Of a stretch of 41,635 nt of DNA, positions 2,434 through 40,916 are shown piece by piece. The notes under the pieces were generated by a model. That model was not told where the DNA came from and made no database searches. It saw nothing but the letters and a program-made list of their open reading frames with translations. This stretch comes from a virus: positions 1 through 41,635 of IMG/VR virus record IMGVR_UViG_3300024520_000169. One strand, written 5' to 3'. Position 1 is the first letter of the stretch, and each line of letters begins with the position of its first letter. Position numbers and translations under genes: made by a program.

Positions 2434-2434
2434 A

Positions 2435-3002: not shown

Positions 3003-3226
3003 GAATTGTGTCGGCGCCGACCCAGGTCTGCGCCTCTCCTCTCTCCTCCTCTCCACCCCGACCGGGGCATAGCGTGGGCTATGTGCGCGGGGTCGATAAA
3101 CGCACGCGCAGGCGCGACCGATGGCCGGCTCCGGTCGGGTATTGGTGCCTCACCAACCGCTCCAGGAATGGGGGGGTTGGGGGGGCGCTCCCTCCGGCCT
3201 TCCAGCCAGGCATTGAGGGTAGAAAG

Positions 3227-4354: not shown

Positions 4355-4355
4355 C

Positions 4356-4823: not shown

Positions 4824-4828
4824 ATCCA

Positions 4829-5242
4829 ATGGCATCGCAGAAAGGAAAAGGCACGGCAATTGAGCCGTTGAGCCCCGAGAAACAGGCTCTCGACAACGCC
4901 GAGGTCCACGACGCAATCCGAGACCATTGTCAGCTGCTCGCCTCCAAGGTGGCCGAGCGCAAGGTGATCAACACCGCGATCAGCCACTCGCGCACGAAGC
5001 TCGTAGACCGCGGGCTGAACCGTAAGGCGATGACGATTATCGAAGCCGTCGCGCGCATGGAGGACCAGCACCGTGAGGGCTTCGCGCAGACGCTTATCCT
5101 GGGGCTGAAGTCCATCGGCCACCCGCTGCAGCAGGATCTATTCATCGAGCCCGAGGAGGAGGCACCGCCGCCCGAGGAGAAGGCTCCACAGGGGCGGCGG
5201 CGCAGCAAACCAGTCAAGCCGGATCTGCGCCCGGTGCAATGA
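4829..5242 (+). CDS. Helical protein with sliding-clamp-type QQDLF motif
   Basis: 137 residues, starting MASQKGKGTA with AGAGGT upstream. Residues about 25-95 are predicted helical with a basic face. This is followed by HPLQQDLFIEPEEE; QQDLF (residues 101-105) matches the bacterial beta-clamp-binding pentapeptide QL(S/D)LF. The tail is acidic and Pro-rich, then basic (GRRRSKPVKP). The region preceding the motif slightly resembles GapR/DUF2312-like DNA-binding proteins, but I cannot confirm this. It probably acts in replication by contacting the host sliding clamp. Confidence 0.7.
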   Translation: MASQKGKGTAIEPLSPEKQALDNAEVHDAIRDHCQLLASKVAERKVINTAISHSRTKLVDRGLNRKAMTIIEAVARMEDQHREGFAQTLILGLKSIGHPLQQDLFIEPEEEAPPPEEKAPQGRRRSKPVKPDLRPVQ

Positions 5243-5505
5243 CCGAGCGCCCGCGTGACCTGAACCGGGTCAAGGCGGCGGCTTTGACGCGCTCGCGGGA
5301 ATGGGTCCGCGAGATGCGTAAGGCCGGCACGGAGCTCAAGCGGTTCGGGGTAAACACATGGAAAGAGCTCTCTTTGCGCCGTGCTCGTGCCGAAATGAAT
5401 GCGTATTACAAGCGGCACGGTCGCAGCTACCACACCCCGCACGCCGGCGCCGCCGAACTGGCTCGCGCCCAACGAGAAGGATCGCCCGCATGGCACGCCT
5501 GGTAA
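5239..5505 (+). CDS. Hypothetical basic protein, 88 residues
   Basis: The ATG overlaps the upstream stop (ATGA). Rich in Arg and Lys (MTERPRDLNRVKAAALTRSR), it is predicted to be mostly helical. No cysteine cluster or membrane segment. Strong basic charge suggests nucleic-acid contact, which is inference only. A 19-codon open frame (5490-5549) follows and may just bridge to the next ribosome site. Confidence 0.6.
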   Translation: MTERPRDLNRVKAAALTRSREWVREMRKAGTELKRFGVNTWKELSLRRARAEMNAYYKRHGRSYHTPHAGAAELARAQREGSPAWHAW

Positions 5506-5545
5506 AACGAGAAGCGATGACACGCGCAGCACTGGAGGAAGTGAA

Positions 5546-5767
5546 GTGAGTATGCCCGAACCCACCCTGCCACAGTTTGCTGCTGCACTCGCCGTGAAGG
5601 ACGCGGAAATCGAACGGCTGCGGAAGGCGCTGGAAAAGGTCTTAGAATTTGAGTCACGCTATCACGAATGGTTGTGGGGGAAAAGTCCATTCCCGCACGA
5701 GGAGGCAGACCGATTGCACGACATCATGCTTCGGCAGGTACGCCAAGCGCTGGAGCAGAAGCCATGA
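5546..5767 (+). CDS. Small coiled-coil protein
   Basis: About 73 residues. GTG at 5546 is placed seven bases after GGAGGA; ATG at 5552 is the alternative. The sequence AALAVKDAEIERLRKALEKVLEFE has a heptad pattern and should form a coiled coil, followed by a Trp/Tyr-rich turn and a second helix. Short coiled-coil proteins of this kind are common in phage accessory regions. The stop overlaps the next ATG. Confidence 0.65.
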   Translation: MSMPEPTLPQFAAALAVKDAEIERLRKALEKVLEFESRYHEWLWGKSPFPHEEADRLHDIMLRQVRQALEQKP

Positions 5768-5946
5768 ACCACCCGCTCCCCCTGCTCATGGTCCTGGTGA
5801 TGGTACATCAGCCGTTCGGCTCCTACGCTGTACTCCAGCGAGGCCTGCCGGAAGGCCATTGCCAGGCCCTCGCGATGAGGATGAACTTCGACCTACAAGC
5901 CGCCGGTGTCTATGACCGTCGCGCGGAGTGCCGTCATGAAGAATGA
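5764..5946 (+). CDS. Small exported or membrane-linked protein
   Basis: 60 residues, coupled to the previous gene by ATGA. The N-terminus MNHPLPLLMVLVMVHQPFG is hydrophobic and could be a signal or membrane segment, although it lacks a strong positive N-region. Two cysteines follow (GHCQAL, AECRHE). No family recognised. The overlap of its 3' end with the next gene is short. Confidence 0.55.
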   Translation: MNHPLPLLMVLVMVHQPFGSYAVLQRGLPEGHCQALAMRMNFDLQAAGVYDRRAECRHEE

Positions 5947-6313
5947 CCTCGAGAAGCCGCCGGCGCCCCAGCCGCCCGCAACCGTTCCGGAAATGGTGGC
6001 CTACGCGGCGGCGCATCCTATCAGGCCCGGCGTGCCGCTCGAGGCCCACGATCCCATCGTCGCGGACCTGGGCGCCGATCATCTCCTCATGGTCGTCGTC
6101 GAATGGTCCGTGCCAGACCAGGCTTTCATGTATCACGCCAGCCTCTCGCGGAAACGGGGTGAGCTCGAGCCACTGGTGGGCATCAGCCTAGCGATGCTCG
6201 CGACTTTCCAGGAGCTCCTCGGCATTCCAGCCCGGTGGGCCTTACATCACTCCATCGTTCACTGGTTCTGGCGCCAGGAGGACGACCAGACCCCCAATTC
6301 GCCGGAGGAGTAA
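5936..6313 (+). CDS. Hypothetical protein, 125 residues
   Basis: The chosen start MKNDLEKPPAPQPP at 5936 overlaps the previous gene by 11 bases; a start at 5906 is possible. After a Pro-rich N-terminus the body has strand-like and helical parts (LLMVVVEWSVPDQAFMY, FQELLGIPARWALHHSI). No known motif. It is part of the run of small co-directional genes before the virion block. Confidence 0.65.
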   Translation: MKNDLEKPPAPQPPATVPEMVAYAAAHPIRPGVPLEAHDPIVADLGADHLLMVVVEWSVPDQAFMYHASLSRKRGELEPLVGISLAMLATFQELLGIPARWALHHSIVHWFWRQEDDQTPNSPEE

Positions 6314-6318
6314 TCAAA

Positions 6319-6570
6319 ATGAAATTCTTATTGATCATGCAGTTATTCGTGAACGGCGCCCATGTGAGCACCGAGCAGGCAAGGGTGCTGGACAAGGCAC
6401 ATTGCGATGCCGCCGTGACGACTTGGGAAGCCGAGAATAATAGGTTATTGGCTAACCCCCATCCTTTCGACCCTACCCGAGTTCAAGGAAAAGCAATCTG
6501 CATCAAAGTTAGCTTGCTGACGGACGGAGAGAAAATACTGCCGATTATTCTCCCGCTGGTCTTGGGGTAA
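6319..6570 (+). CDS. Hypothetical protein with hydrophobic N-terminus
   Basis: 83 residues with a strong GGAGGAG upstream of the ATG. The start MKFLLIMQLFVNGAHV could be a signal-like segment or a buried strand. The middle is polar (ARVLDKAHCDAAVTTWEAEN) and the C-terminal end hydrophobic (ILPIILPLVLG). The pattern (Met-Lys, short hydrophobic strand, Cys-containing helix) is familiar from small phage proteins of unknown function. Confidence 0.65.
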   Translation: MKFLLIMQLFVNGAHVSTEQARVLDKAHCDAAVTTWEAENNRLLANPHPFDPTRVQGKAICIKVSLLTDGEKILPIILPLVLG

Positions 6571-6575
6571 GGGCG

Positions 6576-6950
6576 ATGGCTGACGCCGAAAGCACCCAGA
6601 AAAGCCTATCCACGATTGAAATGATCCGGAACGCTCTAGCTAGTGAGCCGGCGTCGGTGCCCGAGGAGTTCCCCGACCCGGGGGCTTTGATGGTGCGCCG
6701 CCAAGCGTCACGCCCGGATCCCGAGCACCTGATGGTCATCATCACGACGCACGATCGCGACGAGGACACCCTCTCCTTGTTGCTGACCGTGTTCAACGAC
6801 AAACGGGAGGCCCCCCCAGACCCGAAATGGGTCGAGATGTGCGAAGGCGAGGTTTCCGAGCTCCTGGGCCCCCCGGACCTGAAGGTGATTCGCCACAACA
6901 TCCATTGTTGGAGCTATACCGTGCCAGCCTCGCTCGTGCGTGATATGTGA
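6576..6950 (+). CDS. Hypothetical protein, 124 residues
   Basis: Starts MADAESTQKSLSTIEMIRNAL five bases after the previous stop. It contains a strand-rich centre (HLMVIITTHDRDEDTLSLLL) and an acidic segment. No catalytic motif is visible. The stop overlaps the GTG start of the next gene. Confidence 0.65.
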   Translation: MADAESTQKSLSTIEMIRNALASEPASVPEEFPDPGALMVRRQASRPDPEHLMVIITTHDRDEDTLSLLLTVFNDKREAPPDPKWVEMCEGEVSELLGPPDLKVIRHNIHCWSYTVPASLVRDM

Positions 6951-7144
6951 GTGAAAGTGACTACAGCCACATCGACGGGTGGGAGCCGGGGTGGGAGCCC
7001 GCCCCCTGCCCGGACTGCGGCCGAAAAGAGGCGTGCGCGTACTGCCTCCGGCGCATCGAGTGTCTCGTGGAGGAGATCGCGGGACGGCTGCGCCCGATGC
7101 CAACTGACCTATTTCCCGCCCTTCTCCGCCCCCCGCTGCCCTGA
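6947..7144 (+). CDS. Small zinc-ribbon-like protein ending the accessory block
   Basis: 65 residues from a GTG that overlaps the previous stop (GTGA). It contains CPDCGRKEACAYC and a later Cys, so a zinc site is likely. The acidic, Trp-rich N-terminus (DGWEPGWEPAP) is unusual. It is the last gene before the promoter at 7160. Confidence 0.6.
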   Translation: MSESDYSHIDGWEPGWEPAPCPDCGRKEACAYCLRRIECLVEEIAGRLRPMPTDLFPALLRPPLP

Positions 7145-7159
7145 TTGTCGTCACCAAAC

Positions 7160-7188
7160 CTGACACCATAAAAAGCGTCGGCTATTCT
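7160..7188 (+). promoter_or_regulatory. Candidate promoter for the virion block
   Basis: CTGACA (7160-7165), a 17-base spacer and TATTCT (7183-7188) match sigma70 boxes at 5/6 and 4/6 positions. It lies in the only gap between the accessory and structural genes and precedes the gene at 7220. A phage or host alternative factor may be used instead. Confidence 0.5.
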
Positions 7189-7206
7189 TTCGGCACACCC
7201 GAAAGA
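7186..7206 (+). promoter_or_regulatory. Stem-loop overlapping the -10 box and predicted start
   Basis: TCTTTCGG (7186-7193) and CCGAAAGA (7199-7206) form a perfect 8-bp stem with a five-base loop. It overlaps the promoter candidate and lies just upstream of the first virion gene, so it could be an operator, a 5' mRNA stabiliser or a terminator lacking a T tract. Confidence 0.55.
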
Positions 7207-22879: not shown

Positions 22880-23403
22880 GACCTCGAGGAATCCTAGAAG
22901 AAACCTCGAGATTGAAACCTCGAGGGAGTGCCGGGAAAATCACCGTCACGCGCACCCACGACGCCACGCTCGTCCACGAGCTCCTCACGCACCCCGATAT
23001 ATGGGACGCCTCGACCGATGACGGCACGCCGCCGGTCGATGAGTTCGAGCCCGTGATGGACGATGCGCTGTTCTATCTGGTGCCGCACGCCGACGACCTG
23101 GCAATGGGGATTTTCTTGTTGCTCCCCAAGACTTCAACGACGTTCGAGTGGCACACGGGCATCCTGAAAGAGTACCGGGGCAAGCACGCCATCGAGGCCG
23201 TGGAGCGCGGTGTTGAGTGGATGCGCGATAATGCCGGCGCACTCAAGTTAATCACTTGGGTCGAGACCGACGCCCGTAACGTCTATATTTTCGCCAAGGC
23301 CTGTGGCTTCAACGTCGAGGGCACGAGCCGGGCCGCGGTCATGAAACACGGTCAACTTAAAGACCAATACCTCATGGGTAGAGTGCTATGCCAATTGCAA
23401 TAG
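22876..23403 (+). CDS. GNAT-like protein (DUF2824-type) in the tail region
   Basis: 175 residues from a GTG overlapping the previous stop. Contains DALFYLVPHADDLAMGIFLLLPK, EWHTGILKEYRGKHAIEAVERGVEWMR and ITWVETDARNVYIFAKACGFNVEGTSR. The RGK and the N-x-x-x-F-x-x-x-x-G-F pattern are typical of acetyltransferase-like folds, and similar proteins sit beside tail genes in other podoviruses. Activity is not established. Three CCTCGAG repeats are packed into the first 50 bases. Confidence 0.75.
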   Translation: MRPRGILEETSRLKPRGSAGKITVTRTHDATLVHELLTHPDIWDASTDDGTPPVDEFEPVMDDALFYLVPHADDLAMGIFLLLPKTSTTFEWHTGILKEYRGKHAIEAVERGVEWMRDNAGALKLITWVETDARNVYIFAKACGFNVEGTSRAAVMKHGQLKDQYLMGRVLCQLQ

Positions 23404-24080
23404 TCGCAGCCGCCGCCGTCGTCGGCGCTGCCGCCATCGGTGCGTCGGGCCCGAGCAGCATCAACGAGCAAAGAGCGCAAGCTCTACGAAAAGAGGCCGA
23501 AAAAAAGGCTCTTGCGGAGTCTGAAGAAGGCTTTGAGGAGCAACAGGCGGCACTCGAGCCGTTCCTGCAAGTAGGCCGCCAGGCCATCGGCACGTTGGGG
23601 ACCGACGTTGAGGAGCTCACGCGCCCATTCAGCACGGAAGATTTCCAGGCCGACCCGGGGTTTCAGTTCCGCGTCCAGCAGGGCGAGCGCGGCGTCAATA
23701 ACTTTCTGGCCTCTCGAGGCCTCGCCGACTCCGGCCGTGCCGGCAAAGAGCTCTCGCGCTTCAATCAGTCCGAGGCGACCAATGAGTTCGATCGCGCGTT
23801 CGGGCGCTTCCAGGAAACGCAGGGCAACCGTTTCAATCGACTGCTTTCCCTGGCGAACGCCGGCCAGAACGCCACGAACCAGCTGGTCGGCTCCTCGAGG
23901 CAAAAGACCGCGACCAACGTCAACACGATCCTCGGAACCGGCAATAAGAATGCCGCGAGTCAATCCATGATCGGAGACATTGAAAACACCGCGACTGCGC
24001 GCCGCGGTGACGCCATTGCCGGCGCCGCCAAGAGTATCGGCAGCTTCGGCGCGAGTAGCTTGAGCTCGGGGGCAACGTAA
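23388..24080 (+). CDS. DNA transfer (ejection) protein, P22 gp7-like
   Basis: 230 residues. A hydrophobic start (IAIVAAAAVVGAAAIGASGP) is followed by helical sequence with FSTEDFQADPGFQFRVQQGERGVNNFLASRGLADSGRAGKEL-type motif, shared by gp7-like ejection proteins. The C-terminal part is Ala/Gly/Asn-rich. Such proteins are carried in the head and injected with the DNA to form a channel through the envelope. The start overlaps the upstream gene by 16 bases. Confidence 0.8.
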   Translation: MPIAIVAAAAVVGAAAIGASGPSSINEQRAQALRKEAEKKALAESEEGFEEQQAALEPFLQVGRQAIGTLGTDVEELTRPFSTEDFQADPGFQFRVQQGERGVNNFLASRGLADSGRAGKELSRFNQSEATNEFDRAFGRFQETQGNRFNRLLSLANAGQNATNQLVGSSRQKTATNVNTILGTGNKNAASQSMIGDIENTATARRGDAIAGAAKSIGSFGASSLSSGAT

Positions 24081-25186: not shown

Positions 25187-28100
25187 ATGGCCGGTGATCT
25201 CGTTTCGTTCCGAAAGCGCAACCCGGAGTACGACGATCTCTCCGATGTTGAGCTCGTCACCGGGCTGCAGGGGCGCTACAACGAGGAGAACAAGAGCAAT
25301 GTCTCGTTTGAGGACTTCTCAGGCGCCATAGGCTTTGCGGTCGAATCGCGGGTGATTTCAGGGCCCAGCGCCGAGGCCCCACCAGTGCCCGCCCAGGCGC
25401 CACAGCCAGCCGCCCCGCCAGCTGGACCTGTGGTGCAAGTCCCGGAGAACGCGCGTATACCCGCATCCGTAGGCCCCCAGGCGCCCGCTGAAGCGGCGCC
25501 CGGGGAGATGCGTCCACCGTCCACCGAAGGGCTAACCGGCCTCGAGCTCCCCCCAGAGGGGTTTGCACTGACTGGCGAGAACATCCAGCCCAGCATCGAG
25601 GGCGGCCGGGCGCTCACCGAATCCATTGACCGCTTTGCGCGCGGGGAGGCCCCCGCCGGCCAGCCCCAGGAGATCCCCGACCTCCCCATCCGAAAGCCGT
25701 CCGAGATTATGGCCGAGGGTGACGCGACAACCGCTAAGGCTGCGAAAGAGACCCGCACCGCATTCCCGGAGAAGCAGGCCCCGCGGGATTTCACAGAGGA
25801 ACTGTTCACCGACTACCCGATTCTGGCGTTGGCCACGATGATCGAAAGCGTCGTGAACCCGAAACAGGGCCTCGCCGAGACCGCCGCACGCCGCGTGAAG
25901 GGCATCGGCGCCGGCGCCATCACCGCCGGTGGTGGGATGATCGGCTACATCGGCAACAAGGCGAACATACAGGCGCTCAAGGAAGGCAGCCTCGCCGCGG
26001 AGGAGCTCGCTGGGGAGCTCACGCCGGCCGACCCCGCGTTCATTGACACGTTGATGCAGGGGTTCGGCTCGAGTGCTGCCTTTTGGATCCCCGGTATCGG
26101 CATCGCTCGAGGGGCCGGCGCTCTCGCTAAGGTGTCGGAGACAATGGCGCTATGGGCTGGCGCTGGCGCATCGGGAGCGATGGAAGCTGCCGCCGAGGCC
26201 GGCAATGCGTTCAATGAGCTCGTGCGCGAGGGTGTCGAGCCCGAGGAGGCCGAGCGCCGCGCCGATGAGGTTTTTCTAGCTAACGCCGCCCTGGTGACAC
26301 TGTTCAACCGTTTCGGTGTGTTCGGTGCCCGGGGTCAGGCGCAGGCCCGGGCGCTGCTCACGGCCACAGCCGAGGGTATTCAGGAGGCCGGGCAGAGCAT
26401 CATCGGCAACATCGCGACCGACCGGCCGGTAGACGAAGGCCTGAAAGAATCCGCCGCGGTGGGTTTCATTGTCGGTGGTGGCGCGAGCCTCGCGACCGGC
26501 GGCGGTGTGCTGCCGGAGCAGGAAGCCCCGCCGGCGCCGACTGTCGAGGAGGCCCCGGCACCAACACCGCCAACACCGCCAACACCGCCAACACCGCCAA
26601 CACCACCAACACCGCCACCGGCGCCTGAACCGGCCGCGGTTGCTCCTACCCAACCCCAGCCCCCAGCTGCCGGCGCCGAGGTAGGGTTCCGCGGCCAGCC
26701 GGCGGAATCGTTCACCCCTCGAGGGGATGCCGTCGATTCTGTTTACCGCCTGGTGCCCATCGGGGAGCTCATCACAAGCCACGATGATGCAGACAACATC
26801 AACCCGAATTTCCCCGCCGAGCTCCAGCCTCGAGACCGGACCCGCGCCGCGAGCCGTCAACAGATTGCGAAGATTGCGAACAATCTGCGCGTCGATGCGG
26901 TGCTGGGCGCCGGCGATGTGGCAACCGGAGCCCCGACCATCGGCGACGACCTGGTGGTGGAGTCCGGGAACGGGCGGATCATGGGGATGCGCCGGGCGCT
27001 CACCGACCAGCGGGGGGACGAGTACCGCGCCAAGTTGGCCGAGCGCGCAGAAGAATTCGGGTTCACTCGAGAGCAGGTGGAATCCGACCCGACGCTGGTG
27101 CTGGTACGTGAGCGCCAGGCCGGCGCCATCGACCGGGCCGAGTTTGCGCGTCAGGCGAACGAGGGCACGAGCGCCGCATTCTCATCGGCCGAGACCGCCG
27201 CCGCCGACGCTGCGCGTATCACAGACGACGACCTGTCCATCTTCAATCCGAGCGAGGATGGAAACGTGCTCGCCTCGAGCAATCAGGGGTTTCTGCGCGC
27301 CTTCCTGCAAAAGCTCTCCCCCACCGAGGCCGCCGCCCTGTCCGATAAACAGGGACAGCCGACGCGGCAGCTCGCCGAGCGTGTTAACGCCGCCATCTTC
27401 GCCAGGGTCTACGGTGACGAGCGGCTAATCGCGCTGCAGGCCGAGGCCGCGGACCCGGAGATCCGGAATATCCTGAATGCACTCCAGGCGGCGGCGCCGG
27501 CGTTTGCCAAGGCGCGGAGCGTGGACCCGGAGCTCGGTGGGCTGAAACTGTCCGAGGCCATCGCCGAGGGCGCGGAGCTCGTGCGGACGGCCAAGCGTAA
27601 AGGCCAGGCCGTCGAGGAGCTCATCGGGCAGCAGGATGCTTTCAGCGCCGGCACGCCCGAGGGTATCGGCTTTGCGCGCTTCATGGCGCAGAATAACCGC
27701 AGCGCCAGGCGCATGGGCGAGGCCTTCCGCACTATCGGCGAATTCCTCGAGAACGAGCTCCGAAGTCGTCAGACTGAAGATATTTTTGGCAAAGAGCCGG
27801 CATCCACCGCCGACCTATTGAAAGCCGTCAATGCGGCCATCGAGAGGCAAAATGCCACACAAGGACAAGCCCCCGGGGGCGCAACCCCGGACCTCTTTGG
27901 CGCCCGCCCCGGCGCAGACACGGCGACTCGAGCTCCTCAACCGCCTCGTGCAGCTGGGCCTGGCCGCGGGCAATCAGCTGGAAAACAAAGAGCCGCCCCT
28001 AGTGATACCGAAGCGCCTCAAATCTTCACGGGCAAGACGAATTTAGGTAAAGGCAAATTTGGGGCAGACATTCGCCTAGCCGGAAGCGAGTCGACTCATG

Positions 28101-31100
28101 CCGACGGCACGAAGCGGCAATTGATGGTCGACCCTGCCGGGGGATTCTTTTGGGGTCACTATGCGGAAACAACTTCGCGAGAGGGGGAGATTGGCGCCGA
28201 AGGGGAGCACCGAGCTTTTGAGCCGGCGCTATTCGATGGGAGTAAGGACGCCCGAGCAGCCGCAGAGACAACGCCAGCAAGCAAAACCGAGCCGGGGGCC
28301 GCTCCTAGTGGTCCCGCCGGCCCTCGAGGCACCGCCGATACAGAAGCCGCTGCCAAGGTCCGCGAAAGGCTCGAGCGCCGCGCCACCGACAAACTAATCT
28401 CGAGGACCGCCGCCGCGGCGAACAAGGCCAAGGCCCGGCTCAAGCTGTTCGACCAGCTCGTGGCCGACCCCGAAGCCACGGCCGAGCTCGAGAACGAGCG
28501 TGGCCAGGGCGCCATCATCACCCCGGACACCCTCACCCCCGGCAAATGGCGCGTGACATTCTTCGACACCGGCGGCCTATCTGGGCATGAAGTGTTGCCG
28601 ACCCGCCCCGAGGCGCTGTTCTCGGCGCTGTCCGAGGGCTACGACCAGACGGCCCCGGGCAAGCTCGACGCCTTGTTCGGAACGCCAGCATTCCAGGCCG
28701 GCATGGAACAGGTGGAGCAAATTCGCAAAGCCAACGCCGAGACCTTCAGGCCGACCAAGAAGAAAGCTAAGAAGAAGACCGCGAAGAAAAAGACCAAGAA
28801 GAAGACCGCCAAGAAGACCGCCACGGGGAAGGTGAAACGCTTTGGCGAGGGCGATCAGGTCCAGGTGCTCGAGGGGCCGATGGCAAAGCGCCAGGGCCAA
28901 GTCGATAGCCAGGATGGCGACCGCGTAACCGTGCGCTTATCGCCGTTCGGCAGTAAGGCCGGAAGAACGGAAGTGCTTTCCTCGAGGATACTCAAGCTCG
29001 AGCGCACGATGGCCGAGCGGGACGCCGACACGCTCCGAAACTTCCCGAAGGGTACGCGCGGCGTCATCGAGGAGGGCGGTACGAGCTATTTTCTCGAGGA
29101 CGCAGGCTCACCTGGTGAGCCCCAGCTCGACCTATTCGCCCCGCCTGACCGACTGAGGCCGGTGCCGCCGACCAAGCCGCGGGTCAAGCAAGTGAACATC
29201 GGCGTCGTGCGCTCCCCGATCGACACGGTAAACACCGTTGAGGATGCCGTGAGCGTGTTCGCCCCGTTCCGCAAGGATCCCCAGGAAGTGGTCGTGGCTC
29301 TGGTGCTCGACAAGAACAACAAAATCATCCGGGTCATTCGCCACAGCATCGGCGCGACGACCGCGGCCTTCGTGGACACCGCAATCCTTGTCGGCTCCGT
29401 GTCTGAGACCCCGAACGCGGCGAGCGTCTATGTTGCTCACAATCATCCGAGCGGGGGCGTGCAGCAGAGCTCTGCCGACCTTGTGTTCACGGAGAACATC
29501 GCGCGCACCATGCGCGGGAGCGGCATTAAGTTCGAGGCGGCGGTAGTGGTGGCGCCTAACAGCCCCGTCGCGAGTTACCTTCCGATTTCAGAGCTCACTG
29601 GTCGGGGGAACGAGAAACTAACGAGCGTCCAGGCGGCCCGGCGCACCATCGAGATCCCCATCACCGGCCGGCGCTTCGTGCGCTTCGGCACTGACATCAA
29701 CGCAGCGGTCAACGCCAACGATACGTTGATAGCTAGGCGGCTTGCGGGCCGCCAAAAGGGGTCAGGGTTGGTGCTCATCGACCAACAGAATAAGGCCTTG
29801 AAATTCGTGCCGATGACCATCGAGGAAATGGGCGAGCTCCGCACCCGCCGCAAGGGCATTGGGACCACGAAAGTCTTGGCCGAGGTCGCGCGCCAGAATG
29901 CGACCGGCGCCATTGTCGTCGGCCAGGTCGATAATGACATCGACGCGCAGACCGCCGTGACCGCCATGCGGAACACCGGCACGTTCCTGGTGCAATCGGG
30001 GTTGCGTATCCTCGACGCGGTGCTGGTGGGCAGCTCTGGCGAGGCCTCGGCGCAACGCTCGTTTCGGCAGGACAAGCTCGCGCTCGTGAAAGCCGGCGAC
30101 GAGCCGTTCGCGATGGAAGGGCCTAGTCAGACCCAATCGGGGCGGGGAACACCGAGGCGGCGAAGCGTCTCGGGAGAGGCGGGCGGGGCGGTGCCGACTT
30201 CGCCGGCATTGGCGCCACCGACCACCCAGGCGCCGGCGTCCGGCTCCCAGGTCTCGACGCGCCCGGAGCCGTCCGGGAGCTCAACGAGCCGCGCCACGGT
30301 GCCATCAACGACCGCGGGGGAAATTACGACTTCTGAGCGTTTGGGCACGATTGATCCAACCTCTAAACGTATTATCAACCAGGGGTTTAGTGATGTCGAT
30401 GCACTCGAGCGCATGGCGCACGCGAGCCAGCCGGACCTTGAGGCGGCGCTGCGCGAGATTGCCGAACTCCCCGGGGTGGAATTCCTGGCGACCCGCCCGA
30501 AAGACCGCCCCGGTCTCGACCAGAAAATCGGCCAGGACCGCCCCGCCAACACCATCAGCGACTACCTGGGCGGGCGCATCACCGCGGATTCCCGGCAGTC
30601 GATGGAGGCGGCGGTGGATGCGCTGCGTGAGCGGTACCGCATTGTGGAGCTCGAGGACTTCCTGGACCGGCCCAAGCAAGGCTATCGCGCTGTGCACGCC
30701 CAGGTCGAATTTCGCCCGGGGTTCACGGTTGAGATTCAGATTGTCCCGACGCCCATCGCCGGCGTCATGGAGCAAACGCACAAGATTTACGATGACTGGA
30801 AGCGCCTCAACCTCGAGACACTGACGCCCGAGCAGATGCAGGCGCACCGCAAGGCAATGGCGGAAATGGATCAGATCTTCGGTAAGGCCTGGTCGCAGTT
30901 CGAGCACGCCTCGAGGCCCGCGGTCCAGGAAGCCCGGGCGCCTGGTGCGATGCCGGTTCCGCTCCTGCGCGGCCAGCCGAAGCAAGGGGCGCCCCCGGGC
31001 CAGCCGGCGCCGACCACGCCGCCCACGGGGTTCGGGGTGCTCAAGACGCCCATCGCCCCAGACACGCCCATCCGGCGCGAGAAGATTCTCCGCGATCTCG

Positions 31101-34100
31101 AGCGGGCGCTCGGCTTCAAGATCTACACCGGGCGCATGAAGGGCAAAAAGAGCCGGCTCGGGTTCTATCGGCCGCACCTCGAGGAGCTCCGCATCAAGCA
31201 CAACAACGACCTGGAAGTGACCGCCCACGAAGTCGCCCACTTGATGGACGATCGCGACGGCTCGCTCTCGTTGCTCTACCGCCAGGAACCCTATGCGACC
31301 GAGCTCAAGGGCATCGCCTACCCGAGCGCCAAGAATAAGCTCGAGGAGGGGTTCGCCGAATTCATGCGGGCCTTTCTCAGCCAGGAGGAAACCGCCGTGC
31401 TGCGGGCACCGGCGTTCTACGATGCGTTCGTCAACCACATCGAGGGTACCGAATGGCAGGCGGCACTCGAGGAGGCACAAGCCTCGATGCACGCCTGGTA
31501 CCGCCAGGGCGCACTGAACAGTGGCAAGTCGAAAGTCGGCCCCGAGAAAATCGGCTTTTGGGACTGGTTCACGAGCAAAACGAAACGCTGGGATGACACG
31601 GCGCAGGGCGCCATGTGGGACAACTTGCAGGGCTTCAAGGTGGCCGAGCGCGAGCTCTCCGGCACGATTTCGGACGCTGACCTCTCGCCGTACAAAGCCG
31701 CGCGCCTCACGCGCGGGGTGCGTGCGGTCCAGGTGGCCGTACTCAATCACGGCACCATCGGTATCGCGCGCGGCGGCGAGACCTTCACCCTCAAGGGGGG
31801 CCTCGGCGCCGGCAAAGACGTTCGCGTAACGGCCTCGCGCGGAGACATCATCTACACGGGGGTTGGACTTCGCCAGGTGTTCGAGCCTGTGGCCGACGAC
31901 CTCGAGAATACGATGCTCTACTTCACCGGCCGGCGAGCCCAGGAGCTCATGGGACAGGGCCGCGAGAATTTGCTCGAGCAAGACGAGATCGACGCCTTCC
32001 TGGCGCTCGGTGAGGCGAACCCGCGCATCCCCGAGGCCTTCGACGCCTACCAGGCGTTCCTCGATCGCATGTTCGATTTCTACGTAGACGCCGGCATCGT
32101 GTCCGAGGAGTCCCGCGCCGCCATGCAGGCGATGAATCGGAACTATGTGCCGTTCCACCGCGTGCTCGAGCAGGCCACCGGCGAGAAACTGGTGAGCCGC
32201 TTTCAGCCGTTCCGGCGCCTGCGGGGCGGTACCGCCAACATCAAGGACGTATGGGAAAACATCACGGGCAGTGTCCAGAGCCTTATCGACGTGAGCGTGC
32301 GCAATATGGCGAAGCGGCGCATGTACGACATGATTGACACCCGCCAGGGCGCCGCCGAGTTCGCCGTGAAGATTCCCCCGGACACGAAGGCCCTCGCGGT
32401 GCAGAAACAGCAGGTGACAAAGATTCTCAATAACGTGGGGGTGCTCGACACCGCCGGCAATCCCATCGCGGACGCGACCCTCGATACGAGCCGCCTGGCG
32501 GATATGCTGACGTTCTTCACCTTCGGCAATGCGCCCATCGGGGACAACATCGACACGGTAATGCGCAACGGCAAGCGGGACTATTACGAAGTCGCGGATC
32601 CGCTGTTCCTGAAGTCCGCGCTCTCCTGGGGCTTCAAGCCGACGCATTGGATCGTCTCGGGCATGTCCGCGGTCAAGCGCACCCTGACGACCGGCGTCAC
32701 CTCGTTCCCGCCGTTCTGGGCGTTCAACCTGATTCGGGACATGCTCAACGGCTGGAGCCTCAAGCGGTCCAACATGATCCCGGTGATTGACACGCTCCGC
32801 GGGCTAGTGAGCCGGCTCAAGAGCGATGACGCCTATTGGGCGTACATGGCGAACGGCGGTGGCTTCGGCACCCAGGCGCAGGCCGAGTCCCGCAAGCTGA
32901 ACCGGCGCCTCGAGAAGCTGTATGTAGGAAGTGGCATCAACCCCCGCAACGTGTTGCACACGCCCGCCCGCCTGTTCGACTGGTGGGTGAGTGTCGGAGA
33001 GTCGTTCGAGTACGGCACGCGGCTCGGCGAATTCAAGAAGTCGCTCGCACAAGGCAAGTCCATCCAGGAGGGCACGTTCCGCGGGCGCGAGGTCTCGAGT
33101 GATTTCGCGATGCGCGGGTACTCTGATTTCGTGCGCTTCTTCATCAGCACCGTGCCTTTCCTGAACGCCCGGCAACAGGGGCTCTACAAGAACGAACGCG
33201 AATTGTTCGAGCAGCGCGGCAAGCAGCGCAAGCTGCCCAAAGGGGACAATGCCGGCAAGGTGGTGGCGCGCTCGCTCCTGGGGTTCACGCTGCCGTCGTT
33301 GCTCCTGTGGTGGTACAACCACGACGACCCCCGCTACGAGGCACTCCCGGATTGGATCAAGGATCTGCATTGGGTGATTTTCTACGGCGCCGGCGAGGGT
33401 GATTTCGTGCTCATTCCTAAGCCGTTCGAGCAGGGCGCCCTGTGGGCGACCATCCCCGAGCGCACCCTCGAGCTCATCAAGACCCGCGACGGCGAGCAGT
33501 TCGCCGAGGCGATCGTCTGGGTGATTTCGGAAATGCTCAACTTCAGCCTGGTGCCCCAGGTCATCCACCCGATGGACGAGCACCGGACCAACAGCAACTT
33601 TACCGGCGGCAAGATTATCCCCGACGACCTCATTGACGTGGACCCGACGCAGCAGTTCCGCCCCTGGACCTCGGAAACGGCGATCTTCCTGGGTAATCAC
33701 ACCGGCACGTCGCCGATTCTCATCGACCACTATCTCCGCGGGTACTTCGCCACGATGGCCACCTGGAGTCTCATGGCGACCGACGCCGGCCTCGAGGCAG
33801 CCGGCGCGACTGGTCAGCGGGGCGAGATACCCCCGCGCGATTTCGAGGATTACGAGATTGTTCGGCGTTTCACGCGCTCGGTGCCGCTTCGCAGCACTTC
33901 GTTCGCGGATGAGTTTTGGGACATGAAGGAGCAGATCCGCCAGGTCGTGAGCACCTACAATCTAATTTTGAAGCGGGGCGACGATCCCTCGGATTACATC
34001 AACCCGGCGGAACGGGCGGTCCTGTTCGCGACCTCGAGGGCTGCCGGTCAGGTCGGCGCCGAGATCAGCAAACTGAACAACACCATGAGGTTGGTTCGGA

Positions 34101-34261
34101 ATAACAAAATCATGACTGGCGAGGCCAAGGCAGCGGAGCTCAAGCGCATTCGTGCGGCGCGTAATGAGATATTCGAACGGGCGGCGAAAAGCCTGTCCCG
34201 CAATCAGCTCAAGCGGCTGCAGGAAAAACTGCGGCGGCCTGGCAGGAGTGAAGGTCGATGA
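25187..34261 (+). CDS. Giant polyvalent ejection protein, 3024 residues, multi-domain
   Basis: Regions in order: residues 1-450 contain Gly-rich hydrophobic helices (GSSAAFWIPGIGIARGAGALAK). About 458-480 is a TPP repeat. About 518-890 is a ParB/DdrB-like domain (ESGNGR, 592-597). About 1187-1218 is Lys-rich (KKTAKKK) followed by a KOW-like motif. About 1332-1468 is RadC/JAMM (H1418-x-H1420, D1431). About 1712-1892 is RelA/SpoT-like (D1792, R1797, GYRAVH 1832-1837, E1849, Q1851). About 2014-2058 is zincin HEVAH with EEGFAEF. About 2470-2790 resembles LPD38. This is the polyvalent-protein layout, in which enzymatic and DNA-binding domains are injected with phage DNA. Individual activities are inferred from motifs. 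Confidence 0.9.
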   Translation: MAGDLVSFRKRNPEYDDLSDVELVTGLQGRYNEENKSNVSFEDFSGAIGFAVESRVISGPSAEAPPVPAQAPQPAAPPAGPVVQVPENARIPASVGPQAPAEAAPGEMRPPSTEGLTGLELPPEGFALTGENIQPSIEGGRALTESIDRFARGEAPAGQPQEIPDLPIRKPSEIMAEGDATTAKAAKETRTAFPEKQAPRDFTEELFTDYPILALATMIESVVNPKQGLAETAARRVKGIGAGAITAGGGMIGYIGNKANIQALKEGSLAAEELAGELTPADPAFIDTLMQGFGSSAAFWIPGIGIARGAGALAKVSETMALWAGAGASGAMEAAAEAGNAFNELVREGVEPEEAERRADEVFLANAALVTLFNRFGVFGARGQAQARALLTATAEGIQEAGQSIIGNIATDRPVDEGLKESAAVGFIVGGGASLATGGGVLPEQEAPPAPTVEEAPAPTPPTPPTPPTPPTPPTPPPAPEPAAVAPTQPQPPAAGAEVGFRGQPAESFTPRGDAVDSVYRLVPIGELITSHDDADNINPNFPAELQPRDRTRAASRQQIAKIANNLRVDAVLGAGDVATGAPTIGDDLVVESGNGRIMGMRRALTDQRGDEYRAKLAERAEEFGFTREQVESDPTLVLVRERQAGAIDRAEFARQANEGTSAAFSSAETAAADAARITDDDLSIFNPSEDGNVLASSNQGFLRAFLQKLSPTEAAALSDKQGQPTRQLAERVNAAIFARVYGDERLIALQAEAADPEIRNILNALQAAAPAFAKARSVDPELGGLKLSEAIAEGAELVRTAKRKGQAVEELIGQQDAFSAGTPEGIGFARFMAQNNRSARRMGEAFRTIGEFLENELRSRQTEDIFGKEPASTADLLKAVNAAIERQNATQGQAPGGATPDLFGARPGADTATRAPQPPRAAGPGRGQSAGKQRAAPSDTEAPQIFTGKTNLGKGKFGADIRLAGSESTHADGTKRQLMVDPAGGFFWGHYAETTSREGEIGAEGEHRAFEPALFDGSKDARAAAETTPASKTEPGAAPSGPAGPRGTADTEAAAKVRERLERRATDKLISRTAAAANKAKARLKLFDQLVADPEATAELENERGQGAIITPDTLTPGKWRVTFFDTGGLSGHEVLPTRPEALFSALSEGYDQTAPGKLDALFGTPAFQAGMEQVEQIRKANAETFRPTKKKAKKKTAKKKTKKKTAKKTATGKVKRFGEGDQVQVLEGPMAKRQGQVDSQDGDRVTVRLSPFGSKAGRTEVLSSRILKLERTMAERDADTLRNFPKGTRGVIEEGGTSYFLEDAGSPGEPQLDLFAPPDRLRPVPPTKPRVKQVNIGVVRSPIDTVNTVEDAVSVFAPFRKDPQEVVVALVLDKNNKIIRVIRHSIGATTAAFVDTAILVGSVSETPNAASVYVAHNHPSGGVQQSSADLVFTENIARTMRGSGIKFEAAVVVAPNSPVASYLPISELTGRGNEKLTSVQAARRTIEIPITGRRFVRFGTDINAAVNANDTLIARRLAGRQKGSGLVLIDQQNKALKFVPMTIEEMGELRTRRKGIGTTKVLAEVARQNATGAIVVGQVDNDIDAQTAVTAMRNTGTFLVQSGLRILDAVLVGSSGEASAQRSFRQDKLALVKAGDEPFAMEGPSQTQSGRGTPRRRSVSGEAGGAVPTSPALAPPTTQAPASGSQVSTRPEPSGSSTSRATVPSTTAGEITTSERLGTIDPTSKRIINQGFSDVDALERMAHASQPDLEAALREIAELPGVEFLATRPKDRPGLDQKIGQDRPANTISDYLGGRITADSRQSMEAAVDALRERYRIVELEDFLDRPKQGYRAVHAQVEFRPGFTVEIQIVPTPIAGVMEQTHKIYDDWKRLNLETLTPEQMQAHRKAMAEMDQIFGKAWSQFEHASRPAVQEARAPGAMPVPLLRGQPKQGAPPGQPAPTTPPTGFGVLKTPIAPDTPIRREKILRDLERALGFKIYTGRMKGKKSRLGFYRPHLEELRIKHNNDLEVTAHEVAHLMDDRDGSLSLLYRQEPYATELKGIAYPSAKNKLEEGFAEFMRAFLSQEETAVLRAPAFYDAFVNHIEGTEWQAALEEAQASMHAWYRQGALNSGKSKVGPEKIGFWDWFTSKTKRWDDTAQGAMWDNLQGFKVAERELSGTISDADLSPYKAARLTRGVRAVQVAVLNHGTIGIARGGETFTLKGGLGAGKDVRVTASRGDIIYTGVGLRQVFEPVADDLENTMLYFTGRRAQELMGQGRENLLEQDEIDAFLALGEANPRIPEAFDAYQAFLDRMFDFYVDAGIVSEESRAAMQAMNRNYVPFHRVLEQATGEKLVSRFQPFRRLRGGTANIKDVWENITGSVQSLIDVSVRNMAKRRMYDMIDTRQGAAEFAVKIPPDTKALAVQKQQVTKILNNVGVLDTAGNPIADATLDTSRLADMLTFFTFGNAPIGDNIDTVMRNGKRDYYEVADPLFLKSALSWGFKPTHWIVSGMSAVKRTLTTGVTSFPPFWAFNLIRDMLNGWSLKRSNMIPVIDTLRGLVSRLKSDDAYWAYMANGGGFGTQAQAESRKLNRRLEKLYVGSGINPRNVLHTPARLFDWWVSVGESFEYGTRLGEFKKSLAQGKSIQEGTFRGREVSSDFAMRGYSDFVRFFISTVPFLNARQQGLYKNERELFEQRGKQRKLPKGDNAGKVVARSLLGFTLPSLLLWWYNHDDPRYEALPDWIKDLHWVIFYGAGEGDFVLIPKPFEQGALWATIPERTLELIKTRDGEQFAEAIVWVISEMLNFSLVPQVIHPMDEHRTNSNFTGGKIIPDDLIDVDPTQQFRPWTSETAIFLGNHTGTSPILIDHYLRGYFATMATWSLMATDAGLEAAGATGQRGEIPPRDFEDYEIVRRFTRSVPLRSTSFADEFWDMKEQIRQVVSTYNLILKRGDDPSDYINPAERAVLFATSRAAGQVGAEISKLNNTMRLVRNNKIMTGEAKAAELKRIRAARNEIFERAAKSLSRNQLKRLQEKLRRPGRSEGR
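26563..26616 (+). repeat. 9-bp tandem repeat encoding Thr-Pro-Pro
   Basis: Six copies of AACACCGCC (the fifth reads AACACCACC) encode six Thr-Pro-Pro triplets. This forms a linker between the hydrophobic N-terminal region and the ParB/DdrB-like domain of the giant protein. The near-identical units suggest recent slippage, so the linker length may vary between isolates. Confidence 0.9.
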
Positions 34262-35325
34262 CAGTATTCTATCTAGGCAATCCCAGGTTCCGGGCCTTCA
34301 CCGCGGGTGGCCTACCGCTCGCCGGCGGCAAGCTCTATACCTACGTTGAATCGACCGCGACCCCGAAGGCGTCCTACTCGGAGCCGACCGGGGTCACGGC
34401 TCACGCGAACCCCATCATTCTTGACGCTGACGGCGGCGCCGAGATATGGCTCGACGGGCGCTACAAGCTACAGCTCGACAATTCGGCCGACGTGCTCCAA
34501 TGGACGATGGACAAGGTGTTCGGCGTTGGCTTCGTGGACGCAGCCGCGGCTGCCACCGAGTGGGTGCCGCAAACCGCGGACACCCCGGTTTTCATCGACA
34601 CGACCAATTTCTCCGTGACGGGCGACAAGCGCACCACCTACCAGGTGGGCCGGCGCGTGCGTGCGACCGTCACCGCGGGGACGCTCTACGGCACAATTAG
34701 CGTGTCGGCGTTCGTGACCGTTACGACCGTTACGGTTGTCTGGGATAGCGGGGTGCTGGATGCGGGCCTTTCGGCCGTCGCAGTCGGGTTCATCAGCGCG
34801 ACCAACCCCAGCATCAACTGGCAGGCCGTTGATGATGTCGAGCACTCGACGGTGGTCGCCGGCACGCGCATGTTGTTCCAGCAATCGACACCGCCGACCG
34901 GCTGGACAAAGGAAACGAACGCGCTCTATGACGATGCCGCGCTGCACCTGGTCACGGGCGCGGTGGGGACTGGCGGAACGGACGTATTCACCGCGGTTTT
35001 CGGCCCCAGCAAGGACACCCTCGGTCACGCACTTACCGTTAACGAGCTCGCTATTCATAGTCACACGCTCGGCGCGACCTCGATGGATGCGGCTGGCGCA
35101 CACACGCATACCCTTCCGGCCACTAATGTCCTGGCCACCGGGACGGCAGAAACGGGGCCGGGCGCCGCCGACGCTGCAACCCACGGTGGGACGACCGGCT
35201 CGGACGGCGACCACACCCATACATTCACTGGCGGCACCGATAACACCGGCTCCAACGCGCCGCATATCCACGGTCTCACGATGGCACTGAAATACGCCGA
35301 GTGTTGCATCGGGGTTAAAGATTGA
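34258..35325 (+). CDS. Tail fibre with HxH metal-binding C-terminus
   Basis: 355 residues, ATG overlapping the previous stop. The N-terminus (FRAFTAGGLPLAGGKLYTYVESTATPK, ANPIILDADGGAEIWLDGRYKL) is a common phage fibre attachment domain that binds the tail. The C-terminal region carries repeated HxH pairs (HSH, HTH, HTH, HIH) separated by Gly/Thr-rich loops. In the T4 gp37 tip HxH pairs coordinate iron and stabilise the receptor-binding needle. This is the likely host-recognition protein. Confidence 0.85.
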   Translation: MTVFYLGNPRFRAFTAGGLPLAGGKLYTYVESTATPKASYSEPTGVTAHANPIILDADGGAEIWLDGRYKLQLDNSADVLQWTMDKVFGVGFVDAAAAATEWVPQTADTPVFIDTTNFSVTGDKRTTYQVGRRVRATVTAGTLYGTISVSAFVTVTTVTVVWDSGVLDAGLSAVAVGFISATNPSINWQAVDDVEHSTVVAGTRMLFQQSTPPTGWTKETNALYDDAALHLVTGAVGTGGTDVFTAVFGPSKDTLGHALTVNELAIHSHTLGATSMDAAGAHTHTLPATNVLATGTAETGPGAADAATHGGTTGSDGDHTHTFTGGTDNTGSNAPHIHGLTMALKYAECCIGVKD

Positions 35326-39769: not shown

Positions 39770-40047
39770 GTGTAAATCTCCTCAATGAGTCCGCGTGGGT
39801 CGAAGTTGACCTTCACCCATTTGCCGGATGTAACTTTCGCCGGCGTCGGTAAGCGCCACGTCCAATCGCCGTGCCCTATGTCGGTGCGAACGTGGTATCG
39901 AATGCTGGTAATCGTCCAGTTTCCAGTTGCGTGAATGCGCCACTGTTTCGTGTCGTTCGCAAGCACTTGGCGCGCGAGCACTCGTTTCCCGTTCAAGAGT
40001 GTTACGTGTATCCGGAAATCGCCGAGGCTGGGGACATCAATCTTCAT
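39766..40047 (-). CDS. Hypothetical protein within the recombination module
   Basis: 93 residues, coupled by ATGA to the nuclease upstream and by overlap to the annealing protein downstream. Strand-rich (FRIHVTLLNGKRVLARQVLAN, TITSIRYHVRTDIGHGDWTWRL) with a small basic face. Likely a small beta-barrel, perhaps an accessory factor for recombination; inference from position only. Confidence 0.65.
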   Translation of the reverse strand: MKIDVPSLGDFRIHVTLLNGKRVLARQVLANDTKQWRIHATGNWTITSIRYHVRTDIGHGDWTWRLPTPAKVTSGKWVKVNFDPRGLIEEIYT

Positions 40048-40916
40048 TGGAAATTGACGAATTTGCGGCGCTTGAGCAGCACCGCGCCATTGCCGGTGTG
40101 TTTCTGGGCGATGGTGTCGCCCCCGGGCAGGTAGCCGAGGGAGTGCTCGCCCATTTCTGCGAGGACATGGGCCTTGGCCCCGTCAACCACCGCCTGGTAC
40201 TGCGCGCGGCGCTTGCGGGCATCCTCGAGCACGTCCCACCAGTGATCCACTTGCTTGTCGAGGGTGACGCTCGTGCCATCGGTGCCGGGATAGACTCGCT
40301 TCATGAGCTCGAGCGTGGTGCCGTGGTCGAAGTCCCACCCGGGCGGCGTGCCAGCCTTCACGTACTCCATGAACGTGCGCTCGGCGCTCATCAACTGCAG
40401 GCCAACCTCGGGATCGCGATTGATGGTGTAGCGTCGGAATTCTCGCGAGACCAGGAAAAACACCGCCACGTCCCACGCGCCGGCCTTCACAATTTCCATG
40501 TAGTGGATAACCTGCATGAGCGCCTCGTCTGGGATCTCGTCAGTTCCATCGAGGCCCCACCCCTCGGGCGTGGCCGCGGTCTTAATCTCCAGGCCCCGCC
40601 GCCTCCGTTGCGCGCCATACGGCACGAGCATCCGATCGGGGTGTGCCACCGCCCACGGATAGAGCGTGTTGCGGTAGGTGCGGTTGGTGTTTCGGACCTT
40701 GTTGCCGGTCTGCTCCACGTACCAGTTGACGACCATCGGCTCCAGCTGGTGCCCCAGAAAGGCGTTGATGGGATCGATGGGATCTGCGGGCATTTCCCCG
40801 CGCATGATGTAATAGAGCTCCCGCGGCGTTTGCCACCGTGAGAGCCCACAAGTCACGGCGGCATCGCTGCCGCCAATCTTGCCCTCTCGGGCCTTGAGTT
40901 GTTCAGTGGTCAGCAT
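40044..40916 (-). CDS. YqaJ/lambda exonuclease-type nuclease
   Basis: 290 residues. The core motifs are GGSDAAVTCGLSRWQTP (15-31), G-HQLEP with Glu59, HPDRM with Asp94 and LEIKTA with Glu110-x-Lys112, followed by a Q-x-x-HYM helix. This is the PD-(D/E)xK fold of YqaJ viral recombinases, which resect double-strand ends to give single strands for the annealing protein. It overlaps the next gene. Confidence 0.9.
   Translation of the reverse strand: MLTTEQLKAREGKIGGSDAAVTCGLSRWQTPRELYYIMRGEMPADPIDPINAFLGHQLEPMVVNWYVEQTGNKVRNTNRTYRNTLYPWAVAHPDRMLVPYGAQRRRRGLEIKTAATPEGWGLDGTDEIPDEALMQVIHYMEIVKAGAWDVAVFFLVSREFRRYTINRDPEVGLQLMSAERTFMEYVKAGTPPGWDFDHGTTLELMKRVYPGTDGTSVTLDKQVDHWWDVLEDARKRRAQYQAVVDGAKAHVLAEMGEHSLGYLPGGDTIAQKHTGNGAVLLKRRKFVNFQ

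What the first reader, a model, noticed from the sequence alone, without database searches (positions are those of the whole stretch)
30320..30865. RelA/SpoT-like domain inside the injected giant protein
Motifs of a ppGpp synthetase-type fold are readable: a D-Y-x-G-G-R strand (D1792, R1797), GYRAVH (1832-1837) and E-I-Q (E1849, Q1851). If active and delivered with the DNA, it could change host alarmone or nucleotide pools at once after infection, or make another nucleotide-based product.
Basis: partly seen in the sequence, partly recalled or inferred. Interest (0 to 1): 0.74.

Follow-up and report, generated by a model that had tools for sequence, protein, structure and literature searches.

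The report
Alarmone-synthetase-like domain in phage giant protein
A short-tailed phage carries, inside a giant protein probably injected with its DNA, an intact-looking enzyme domain of the family that makes the bacterial alarm signal ppGpp; its substrate pocket differs from the known ppGpp makers, so what it modifies is open.

Summary
ORF 25187-34261 encodes a 3,024-aa polyvalent protein. Residues 1718-1905 (30338-30901) form a RelA/SpoT-type synthetase domain: Pfam above cut-off on the isolated segment (below it on the whole protein), AlphaFold pLDDT 91.5, best solved match Z 17.0 (the ppGpp synthetase YjbM). Nine of 11 ATP/Mg/acceptor-base residues described for FaRel2 are kept. Injection is inferred: the gene follows two podoviral ejection-type genes and precedes a tail-fibre-like gene, and close sister domains are fused to T7-like internal virion proteins. 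The RelA block is swappable cargo: 0 of 80 giants sharing the C-terminal shell carry it, and the nearest sister has a GNAT-like block there. Product: not settled. The domain belongs to a phage-only clade lacking the G-loop Lys (K-x-[N/S]-G-Y), the Ser of GY[QR]SxH and the Arg of QIR seen in all six solved GTP pyrophosphokinases inspected, and the GxN of adenosine 3'-pyrophosphokinases; GYRAVH is identical to the tRNA-targeting toxin PhRel. I commit to an injected ATP-dependent 3'-pyrophosphokinase, product unassigned. RelA/SpoT domains in phage polyvalent proteins were reported in 2017, so this is a new variant of a known kind.

The parts
25187..34261 (+). Giant polyvalent protein, 3,024 aa, one uninterrupted frame
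30338..30901 (+). RelA/SpoT-type pyrophosphokinase (SYNTH) domain, aa 1718-1905
   Evidence: PF04607; AlphaFold model; VIA Z 17.0
30494..30526 (+). ATP-donor motif R1770-x-K1772...K1780
   Evidence: aligned with RelA, CapRel and PhRel; FaRel2 residues from PMC11782079 passages
30560..30577 (+). D1792-Y-L-G-G-R1797: Mg-binding Asp and adenine-stacking Arg
30671..30697 (+). G-loop P1829-K-Q-G-Y1833-R-A-V-H1837: acceptor Tyr kept; one residue shorter than in RelA and CapRel, no Lys at Y-4
30731..30739 (+). E1849-I-Q1851 (strand 5); followed by I-V instead of I-R
30053..30337 (+). Low-complexity linker upstream of the RelA domain (aa 1623-1717); not shared with the sister giant L062
30902..31057 (+). 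Pro-rich linker downstream (aa 1906-1957), ending at the shared GFGVL boundary
31058..31640 (+). Zincin-like metallopeptidase domain, HEVAH 2014-2018 and EGFAEF 2054-2059
   Evidence: H80, E81, H84, D87 and EGFAEF invariant in 25 of 25 rows; model pLDDT 83.9, weak fold match to Pro-Pro endopeptidases
33326..33823 (+). LPD38 within the conserved C-terminal shell (aa 1958-3014)
   Evidence: shell aligned
26720..27115 (+). DdrB-like ParB domain (aa 512-643)
28847..28939 (+). KOW-like motif (aa 1221-1251), below cut-off
29234..29575 (+). RadC-like JAB domain (aa 1350-1463)
23388..24080 (+). DNA-ejection protein, 230 aa, phrog_598 (P22 gp7 position)
   Evidence: same family in BA3 and Vibrio phage 1.183.O
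24080..25183 (+). phrog_36852 protein, 367 aa (P22 gp20 position)
   Evidence: same family in BA3
34258..35325 (+). Tail-fibre-like gene downstream (weak match)
   Evidence: phrog_2097, E 7.9e-5; Phage_fiber below cut-off
15819..17930 (+). Portal protein (phrog_156)
19006..20262 (+). Major head protein (phrog_283)

Best explanation
The block is an ATP-dependent 3'-pyrophosphokinase domain of the RelA/SpoT fold, carried as exchangeable cargo inside a podoviral ejection-type giant protein. Proposed mechanism: the giant is packaged, leaves the virion with gp7/gp20-like partners, and its central part reaches the host cytoplasm, where the adjacent zincin-like domain may cut it into units. The RelA unit then moves the pyrophosphate of ATP onto the 3'-hydroxyl of an acceptor at once after entry, before phage genes are expressed, damping host functions or defence. 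Shown by computation: fold, conserved donor and catalytic residues, gene order, cargo swapping, purifying selection in sister domains. Inferred: packaging and injection (about 0.75), catalytic activity (about 0.75), proteolytic release (about 0.35). Acceptor: nucleotide (ppGpp, ppApp or another, about 0.5), RNA 3' end such as tRNA CCA (about 0.3), other or inactive (about 0.2).
For: Fold: pLDDT 91.5, Z 17.0 over 170 residues to YjbM with pppGpp, 13.4 Tas1, 12.7 CapRel. Residues: 9 of 11 FaRel2 ATP/Mg/acceptor-Tyr residues kept. Family: phage-only clade of 9 rows, support 99/99. Selection: dN/dS 0.09-0.48 in the 19 of 45 pairs that passed the divergence filter. Ejection: phrog_598 - phrog_36852 - giant order as in BA3; review passages give the order gp14-like, gp15-like, larger gp16 and P22 gp7 = 229 aa. 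Sister giant L050 matches internal virion protein phrog_6651, E 3.5e-15; a gp15-like gene lies directly upstream in 9 of 11 T7-like loci and a tail fibre directly downstream in 9 of 11. Cargo: 0 of 80 shell giants carry it (positive control 12 of 12, most of them rows of the model itself).
Against: No biochemistry and no virion proteomics. S70 of FaRel2 is Gly in all 9 members of the clade and R77 is Gln in the window. The window giant matches no PHROG labelled ejection or internal virion protein; its link to gp16 is position only. A catalytic domain inside a 3,024-aa chain must pass the portal partly unfolded and refold, which is unproven. Two of the 15 aligned RelA-like domains (L029, L033) lost the R64, K74 and R95 equivalents, so degeneration does occur in the wider group.
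Confidence: 0.6

Rival explanations
1. A true (p)ppGpp synthetase that raises the host alarmone at entry, as Iyer et al. 2017 proposed for polyvalent proteins and.
For: Highest structural scores are to ppGpp synthetases YjbM, YwaC and RelP, Z 16-17; H1837, E1849 and Q1851 kept; stated as an expectation in PMC5512222 section 22.
Against: K-x-[N/S]-G-Y, the Ser of GY[QR]SxH and the Arg of QIR, present in 6 of 6 solved GTP pyrophosphokinases inspected (RelA, RelSeq, YwaC, YjbM, RelP, 2be3), are all absent in the window, and the G-loop basic residue varies in the clade (K, M, V, Q).
Confidence: 0.25
2. A tRNA-end (or other RNA 3'-end) pyrophosphokinase like PhRel, CapRel and FaRel2, shutting host translation at entry.
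For: GYRAVH is identical to PhRel (Phrann gp29), which also has Pro, not Lys, at Y-4; PhRel-type genes are the best isolate-phage hits (33%, E 0.05-0.06; E 5e-6 pairwise).
Against: Not in the PhRel clade; deep placement unresolved, 47/4. CapRel has the G-loop Lys, so that feature is not diagnostic. PhRel and CapRel keep QIR/QLR, the window does not. The basic CCA groove could not be tested without coordinates.
Confidence: 0.25
3. A (p)ppApp synthetase like Tas1/Apk1, Apk2 or SaEAS, draining ATP.
For: Z 13.4 to Tas1 and 13.1 to SaEAS; MuF-Apk2 proteins of temperate phages are a precedent.
Against: Adenosine 3'-pyrophosphokinases carry GxN at syn3 (passages of PMC12226406); the window has AxH.
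Confidence: 0.15
4. A catalytically dead or structural remnant, or a decoy that binds a host nucleotide or antitoxin.
For: S70 to Gly; unusual acceptor side; degenerate L029 and L033.
Against: Catalytic Asp, both donor Lys, the Arg pair, Tyr, Glu and Gln invariant in 9 of 9 clade members; purifying selection in sister pairs.
Confidence: 0.15

Closest known systems
RelA/SpoT domains of phage polyvalent proteins (Iyer et al. 2017, PMC5512222)
   Same: RelA/SpoT domain in a multidomain phage protein, in one case with DdrB-ParB; LPD38 and zincins belong to the same class of protein; the same idea of early delivery (passages and section 22).
   Different: Reported there for spirochaete and epsilonproteobacterial (pro)phages and MuF fusions; here a P22-like podovirus record with sisters fused to T7-like internal virion proteins, an unusual acceptor site, and RadC in the same phage protein (stated there to occur only in conjugative elements).
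PhRel (Mycobacterium phage Phrann gp29) and CapRel/FaRel2 tRNA pyrophosphokinases
   Same: Fold, donor site; GYRAVH shared with PhRel.
   Different: Those are toxins of toxin-antitoxin systems; here cargo in a giant protein; QIR is lost; clade distinct.
MuF-Apk2 (p)ppApp synthetases of temperate phages (PMC12226406)
   Same: RSH-fold enzyme in a phage protein linked to the head genes (passages).
   Different: MuF fusion with immunity genes and GxN motif; here an ejection-type giant, AxH, and no HD-type hydrolase found in the record.
Small alarmone synthetases YjbM/RelQ, YwaC/RelP
   Same: Best structural matches, Z 16-17.
   Different: Stand-alone; K-x-[N/S]-G-Y, SxH and QIR present there, absent here.
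uncultured Caudovirales RelA/SpoT proteins in BFVD
   Same: Best predicted-structure match A0A516LGL6, 1,321 aa, TMq 0.80; several are large and DdrB-like or ART-PolyVal-like by name.
   Different: Only names and scores seen; their architecture was not examined.

Membership tests
RelA/SpoT homologue synthetase domain (PF04607 / SYNTH fold) | Match to the curated profile | tested here: met
   30.8 and 31.8 bits on the segment, cut-off 27; but 25.3 bits in the whole protein
RelA/SpoT homologue synthetase domain (PF04607 / SYNTH fold) | Synthetase fold | tested here: met
   pLDDT 91.5; Z 17.0
RelA/SpoT homologue synthetase domain (PF04607 / SYNTH fold) | Catalytic Asp, donor R-x-K...K, acceptor Tyr, E-x-Q | tested here: met
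(p)ppGpp synthetase (long RSH or SAS) | G-loop K-x-[N/S]-G-Y-[QR]-S-x-H as in six solved enzymes | tested here: not met
   window P-K-Q-G-Y-R-A-V-H
(p)ppGpp synthetase (long RSH or SAS) | Arg after E-x-Q-I | tested here: not met
   Val in the window
(p)ppGpp synthetase (long RSH or SAS) | Makes (p)ppGpp | not testable with these tools
   needs an enzyme assay
tRNA-targeting toxSAS (PhRel, CapRel, FaRel2) | Clusters with PhRel or CapRel | tested here: inconclusive
   deep forks 47/4, long branches
tRNA-targeting toxSAS (PhRel, CapRel, FaRel2) | Basic CCA groove and tRNA pyrophosphorylation | not testable with these tools
   no coordinates or assay
tRNA-targeting toxSAS (PhRel, CapRel, FaRel2) | Antitoxin neighbour or fused pZFD | not tested
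   no antitoxin model was searched
Adenosine 3'-pyrophosphokinase (Apk/Tas1) | GxN at syn3 | tested here: not met
   AxH in the window
Phage polyvalent protein (Iyer 2017) | Several unrelated conflict-type domains in one chain, with LPD, DdrB-ParB or MPTase | tested here: met
   LPD38, ddrB-ParB, RadC, RelA_SpoT, zincin motif
Podoviral gp16-type ejection protein | Large ORF directly after gp14/gp7- and gp15/gp20-like genes | tested here: met
   phrog_598, phrog_36852, giant; order from PMC8954989 passages
Podoviral gp16-type ejection protein | Sequence match to an internal virion or gp16 profile | tested here: inconclusive
   window giant matches only PHROGs without an ejection label; sister L050 matches phrog_6651
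Podoviral gp16-type ejection protein | Present in the virion and injected | not testable with these tools
   needs proteomics

The most novel reading that the evidence does not exclude
Several podovirus lineages have loaded their DNA-ejection proteins with a phage-specific branch of RelA/SpoT-fold enzymes whose acceptor is not guanosine but an RNA 3' end (for example the tRNA CCA end) or a new nucleotide, so that host translation or defence is switched off by a virion-borne enzyme within the first moments of infection, the mirror image of the tRNA-pyrophosphorylating toxins that bacteria and prophages use against phages.
Probability: 0.2. Interest if true: 0.82.

Novelty: new variant of a known kind. 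Interest (0 to 1): 0.52.

Why it matters
If the domain is active and injected, it gives a clean test of a 2017 prediction that phages deliver alarmone-type enzymes with their DNA. It provides a family of sister domains in T7-like contigs where virion location can be tested directly, and an RSH branch with an unusual acceptor pocket whose substrate would add to what this fold is known to modify.

Tried and rejected
Chance: rejected by profile scores and fold. The tblastn hit of the domain in Bacillus phage SP-15 (E 5e-3) lies in a gene annotated as terminase large subunit and lacks the aligned motifs; dropped as chance. Synechococcus phage MinM2's giant protein is annotated RelA/SpoT but shows no PF04607 match at E 0.1 and no RelA-like motif set; dropped. 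The Lys of the G-loop as a marker between nucleotide and tRNA acceptors was rejected because CapRel has it. Zincin-like domain as a Pro-Pro endopeptidase acting on PP-rich linkers: best VIA Z only 8.6 over 128 residues at 3.9 A, no Foldseek match at E 0.001, and PP-rich linkers are not general (0.17 PP per 100 aa in the middle of 47 other giants over 2,000 aa against 1.0 in the window); kept as an idea only. A tree to place the domain among known RSH was inconclusive at depth. A self-protection HD hydrolase in the record: none found for PF13328 or PF01966, but the record may be incomplete. Searches that gave no relative of the query; megablast of the first 25 kb against phages, none. Genome contigs gave 2 PhRel-like loci.

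Limits: the 80 giants are those kept of 143 confirmed of 407 matched stretches; ten of their ORFs run off the 5' end, L100 with almost no upstream DNA. In one search, L043-L045, L048/L050 and L052/L053 have identical domains, so the 11 T7-like loci stand for six or seven distinct domains. Alignment A5 left out duplicates (L044, L045, L050, L053), L024 and distant solo domains (L028, L030, L035). Of the 17 stretches, L032, L034, L036 and L041 are chance. The window is in none of the dN/dS pairs printed. The FaRel2 sequence itself was not retrieved: its residues were mapped by motif spacing and through CapRel and RelA. Papers: PMC5512222, passages and section 22; PMC7824862, PMC11782079, PMC11559606, PMC12691689, PMC12226406, PMC8954989 and PMC12373910, passages only; all others, listing only.

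Full report
What is there. ORF 25187-34261 is an uninterrupted 3,024-aa frame. Pfam finds ddrB-ParB (aa 512-643), a sub-threshold KOW motif (1221-1251), RadC (1350-1463), RelA_SpoT (1770-1852) and LPD38 (2714-2879). PF04607 reaches 30.8 bits on the isolated segment and 31.8 in a six-frame search of the record, against a cut-off of 27; on the whole protein it scores 25.3 bits.

Family. The domain alone had no confirmed relative by a single-sequence scan of IMG/VR and only weak hits in 50,697 isolate-phage records (8 records at E 10 or better, among them Phrann gp29/PhRel twice and its neighbour WST1). A degenerate DNA pattern around the G-loop and then an alignment-based scan brought in 14 IMG/VR loci. 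All 14 domains sit in ORFs of 620-1,562 aa, some cut by contig or locus ends. A tree puts the window in a phage-only clade of 9 rows (99/99) with L042 as nearest row (44% identity); the relation to PhRel, CapRel, RelA and SpoT is unresolved (47/4). Sister domains are under purifying selection: dN/dS 0.09-0.48 over the 19 of 45 pairs that passed the divergence filter; none includes the window. Two sister domains give no isolate-phage hit at E 0.1.

Fold and active site. AlphaFold with the 15-row alignment A5 gives pLDDT 91.5, pTM 0.85. VIA Z: YjbM 17.0 (170 residues, 2.9 A), YwaC 16.7, RelP 16.1, Tas1 13.4, SaEAS 13.1, CapRel 12.7, Rel proteins 8.2-12.5, FaRel2 7.3-7.8; the first row outside the family is 7.1. 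Passages of PMC11782079 list the FaRel2 contacts R64, K66, S70, K74, R77, D90, G93, R95, Y128, E145, Q147. By alignment with E. coli RelA, CapRel and PhRel, the window keeps nine of eleven (R1770, K1772, K1780, D1792, G1795, R1797, Y1833, E1849, Q1851); S70 is Gly (also in 9 of 9 clade rows) and R77 is Gln, a position that also varies in CapRel (Asn) and RelA (Lys).

Acceptor side. Six solved GTP pyrophosphokinases whose alignments I could read (RelA, RelSeq, YwaC, YjbM, RelP, 2be3) share K-x-[N/S]-G-Y-[QR]-S-x-H and QIR. The window has P-K-Q-G-Y-R-A-V-H and QIV; sister domains have K, M, V or Q at Y-3 and always Pro at Y-4. Adenosine 3'-pyrophosphokinases carry GxN at this motif (passages). 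PhRel, reported to pyrophosphorylate tRNA (passages), has GYRAVH and Pro at Y-4 but keeps QIR. CapRel has the Lys, so no single residue assigns the acceptor. I therefore do not file this as a (p)ppGpp synthetase.

Delivery. Upstream lie portal, scaffold, major head and head-closure proteins, a phrog_598 DNA-ejection protein (230 aa) and a phrog_36852 protein; a tail-fibre-like gene follows. Thalassomonas phage BA3 has the same phrog_598 - phrog_36852 - giant order. A review of ejection proteins states that gp14-like and gp15-like genes precede a larger gp16 gene and lists P22 gp7 as 229 aa (passages). In the T7-like loci L043-L053 the RelA ORF is preceded directly by a gp15-like gene in 9 of 11 and followed by a tail fibre in 9 of 11, the misses being contig ends; 8 of the 11 carry the region homologous to internal virion protein in the same ORF, while in L051 it lies in the next overlapping ORF and L049 and L053 are cut. 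In L054 it also lies in the next overlapping ORF. In L042, L029 and L033 the RelA ORF is followed by a phrog_684-type virion protein. So related RelA domains ride on at least three kinds of ejection-region protein.

Cargo logic. BA3 and Vibrio phage 1.183.O align with the window giant only at about aa 5-50 and 1958-3014 (about 30% over the long part), and carry a methyltransferase in the middle. Of 80 IMG/VR giants with the C-terminal shell, all 80 have the zincin segment and none has the RelA domain at E 1; the same model finds 12 of 12 positives, most of them rows of the model. None of 13 records with DdrB relatives has PF04607 at E 1. The nearest sister, L062 (52% over the shell), matches the window at 1-49, 62-908, 1292-1622 and 1937-3015, and in the RelA slot carries a GNAT-like block (PF13508, E 0.0085, below cut-off). 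The zincin motif (HExxH...EGFAEF) is invariant in 25 of 25 rows, consistent with the proposal in PMC5512222 that such peptidases release units (passages).

Known or new. RelA/SpoT in phage polyvalent proteins, including together with DdrB-ParB, and the idea of an alarmone-like response, are in PMC5512222. I saw no paper describing RelA/SpoT fused to podoviral ejection proteins in the searches, which cover only the open PMC subset. The verdict is a new variant of a known kind: fold certain, delivery and activity likely, product open.

Noticed in passing
[quoted passage not shown]
   Followed up: partly
28847-28939 (aa 1221-1251): KOW-like motif, below cut-off, after a Lys-rich stretch; in the sister L062 this region is replaced by a longer stretch with a methyltransferase.
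   Followed up: partly
L062:9353-9985: GNAT-like block in exactly the slot that holds RelA in the window: a natural cargo swap between close sister giants.
   Followed up: partly
L029:1220-1810 and L033:8130-8789: RelA-like domains in phage ejection-region proteins that lost R64, K74 and R95 equivalents but keep Asp, Tyr, His, Glu and Gln; degenerate or a different reaction.
   Followed up: no
L051:2425-4425 with 4169-6877, and L054:2360-4219 with 4209-7196: The RelA-bearing part is a separate ORF overlapping the ORF with the internal-virion-protein region: split gene or frame break.
   Followed up: no
L019 (LC711081.1, archaeal plasmid): RelA-like domain lacking the Arg after D-x-x-G, annotated as bifunctional RelA; matches the window's H-K-x-Y segment well.
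   Followed up: no
L016:6329-14740 (Synechococcus phage MinM2): Giant protein annotated RelA/SpoT without any PF04607 match; probably misnamed.
   Followed up: yes
30305-32647, minus strand: 780-aa open frame opposite the giant gene, likely a shadow of the G+C-rich plus-strand codons.
   Followed up: no
40044-40916, minus strand: YqaJ-like viral recombinase (PF09588, E 6e-21).
   Followed up: no
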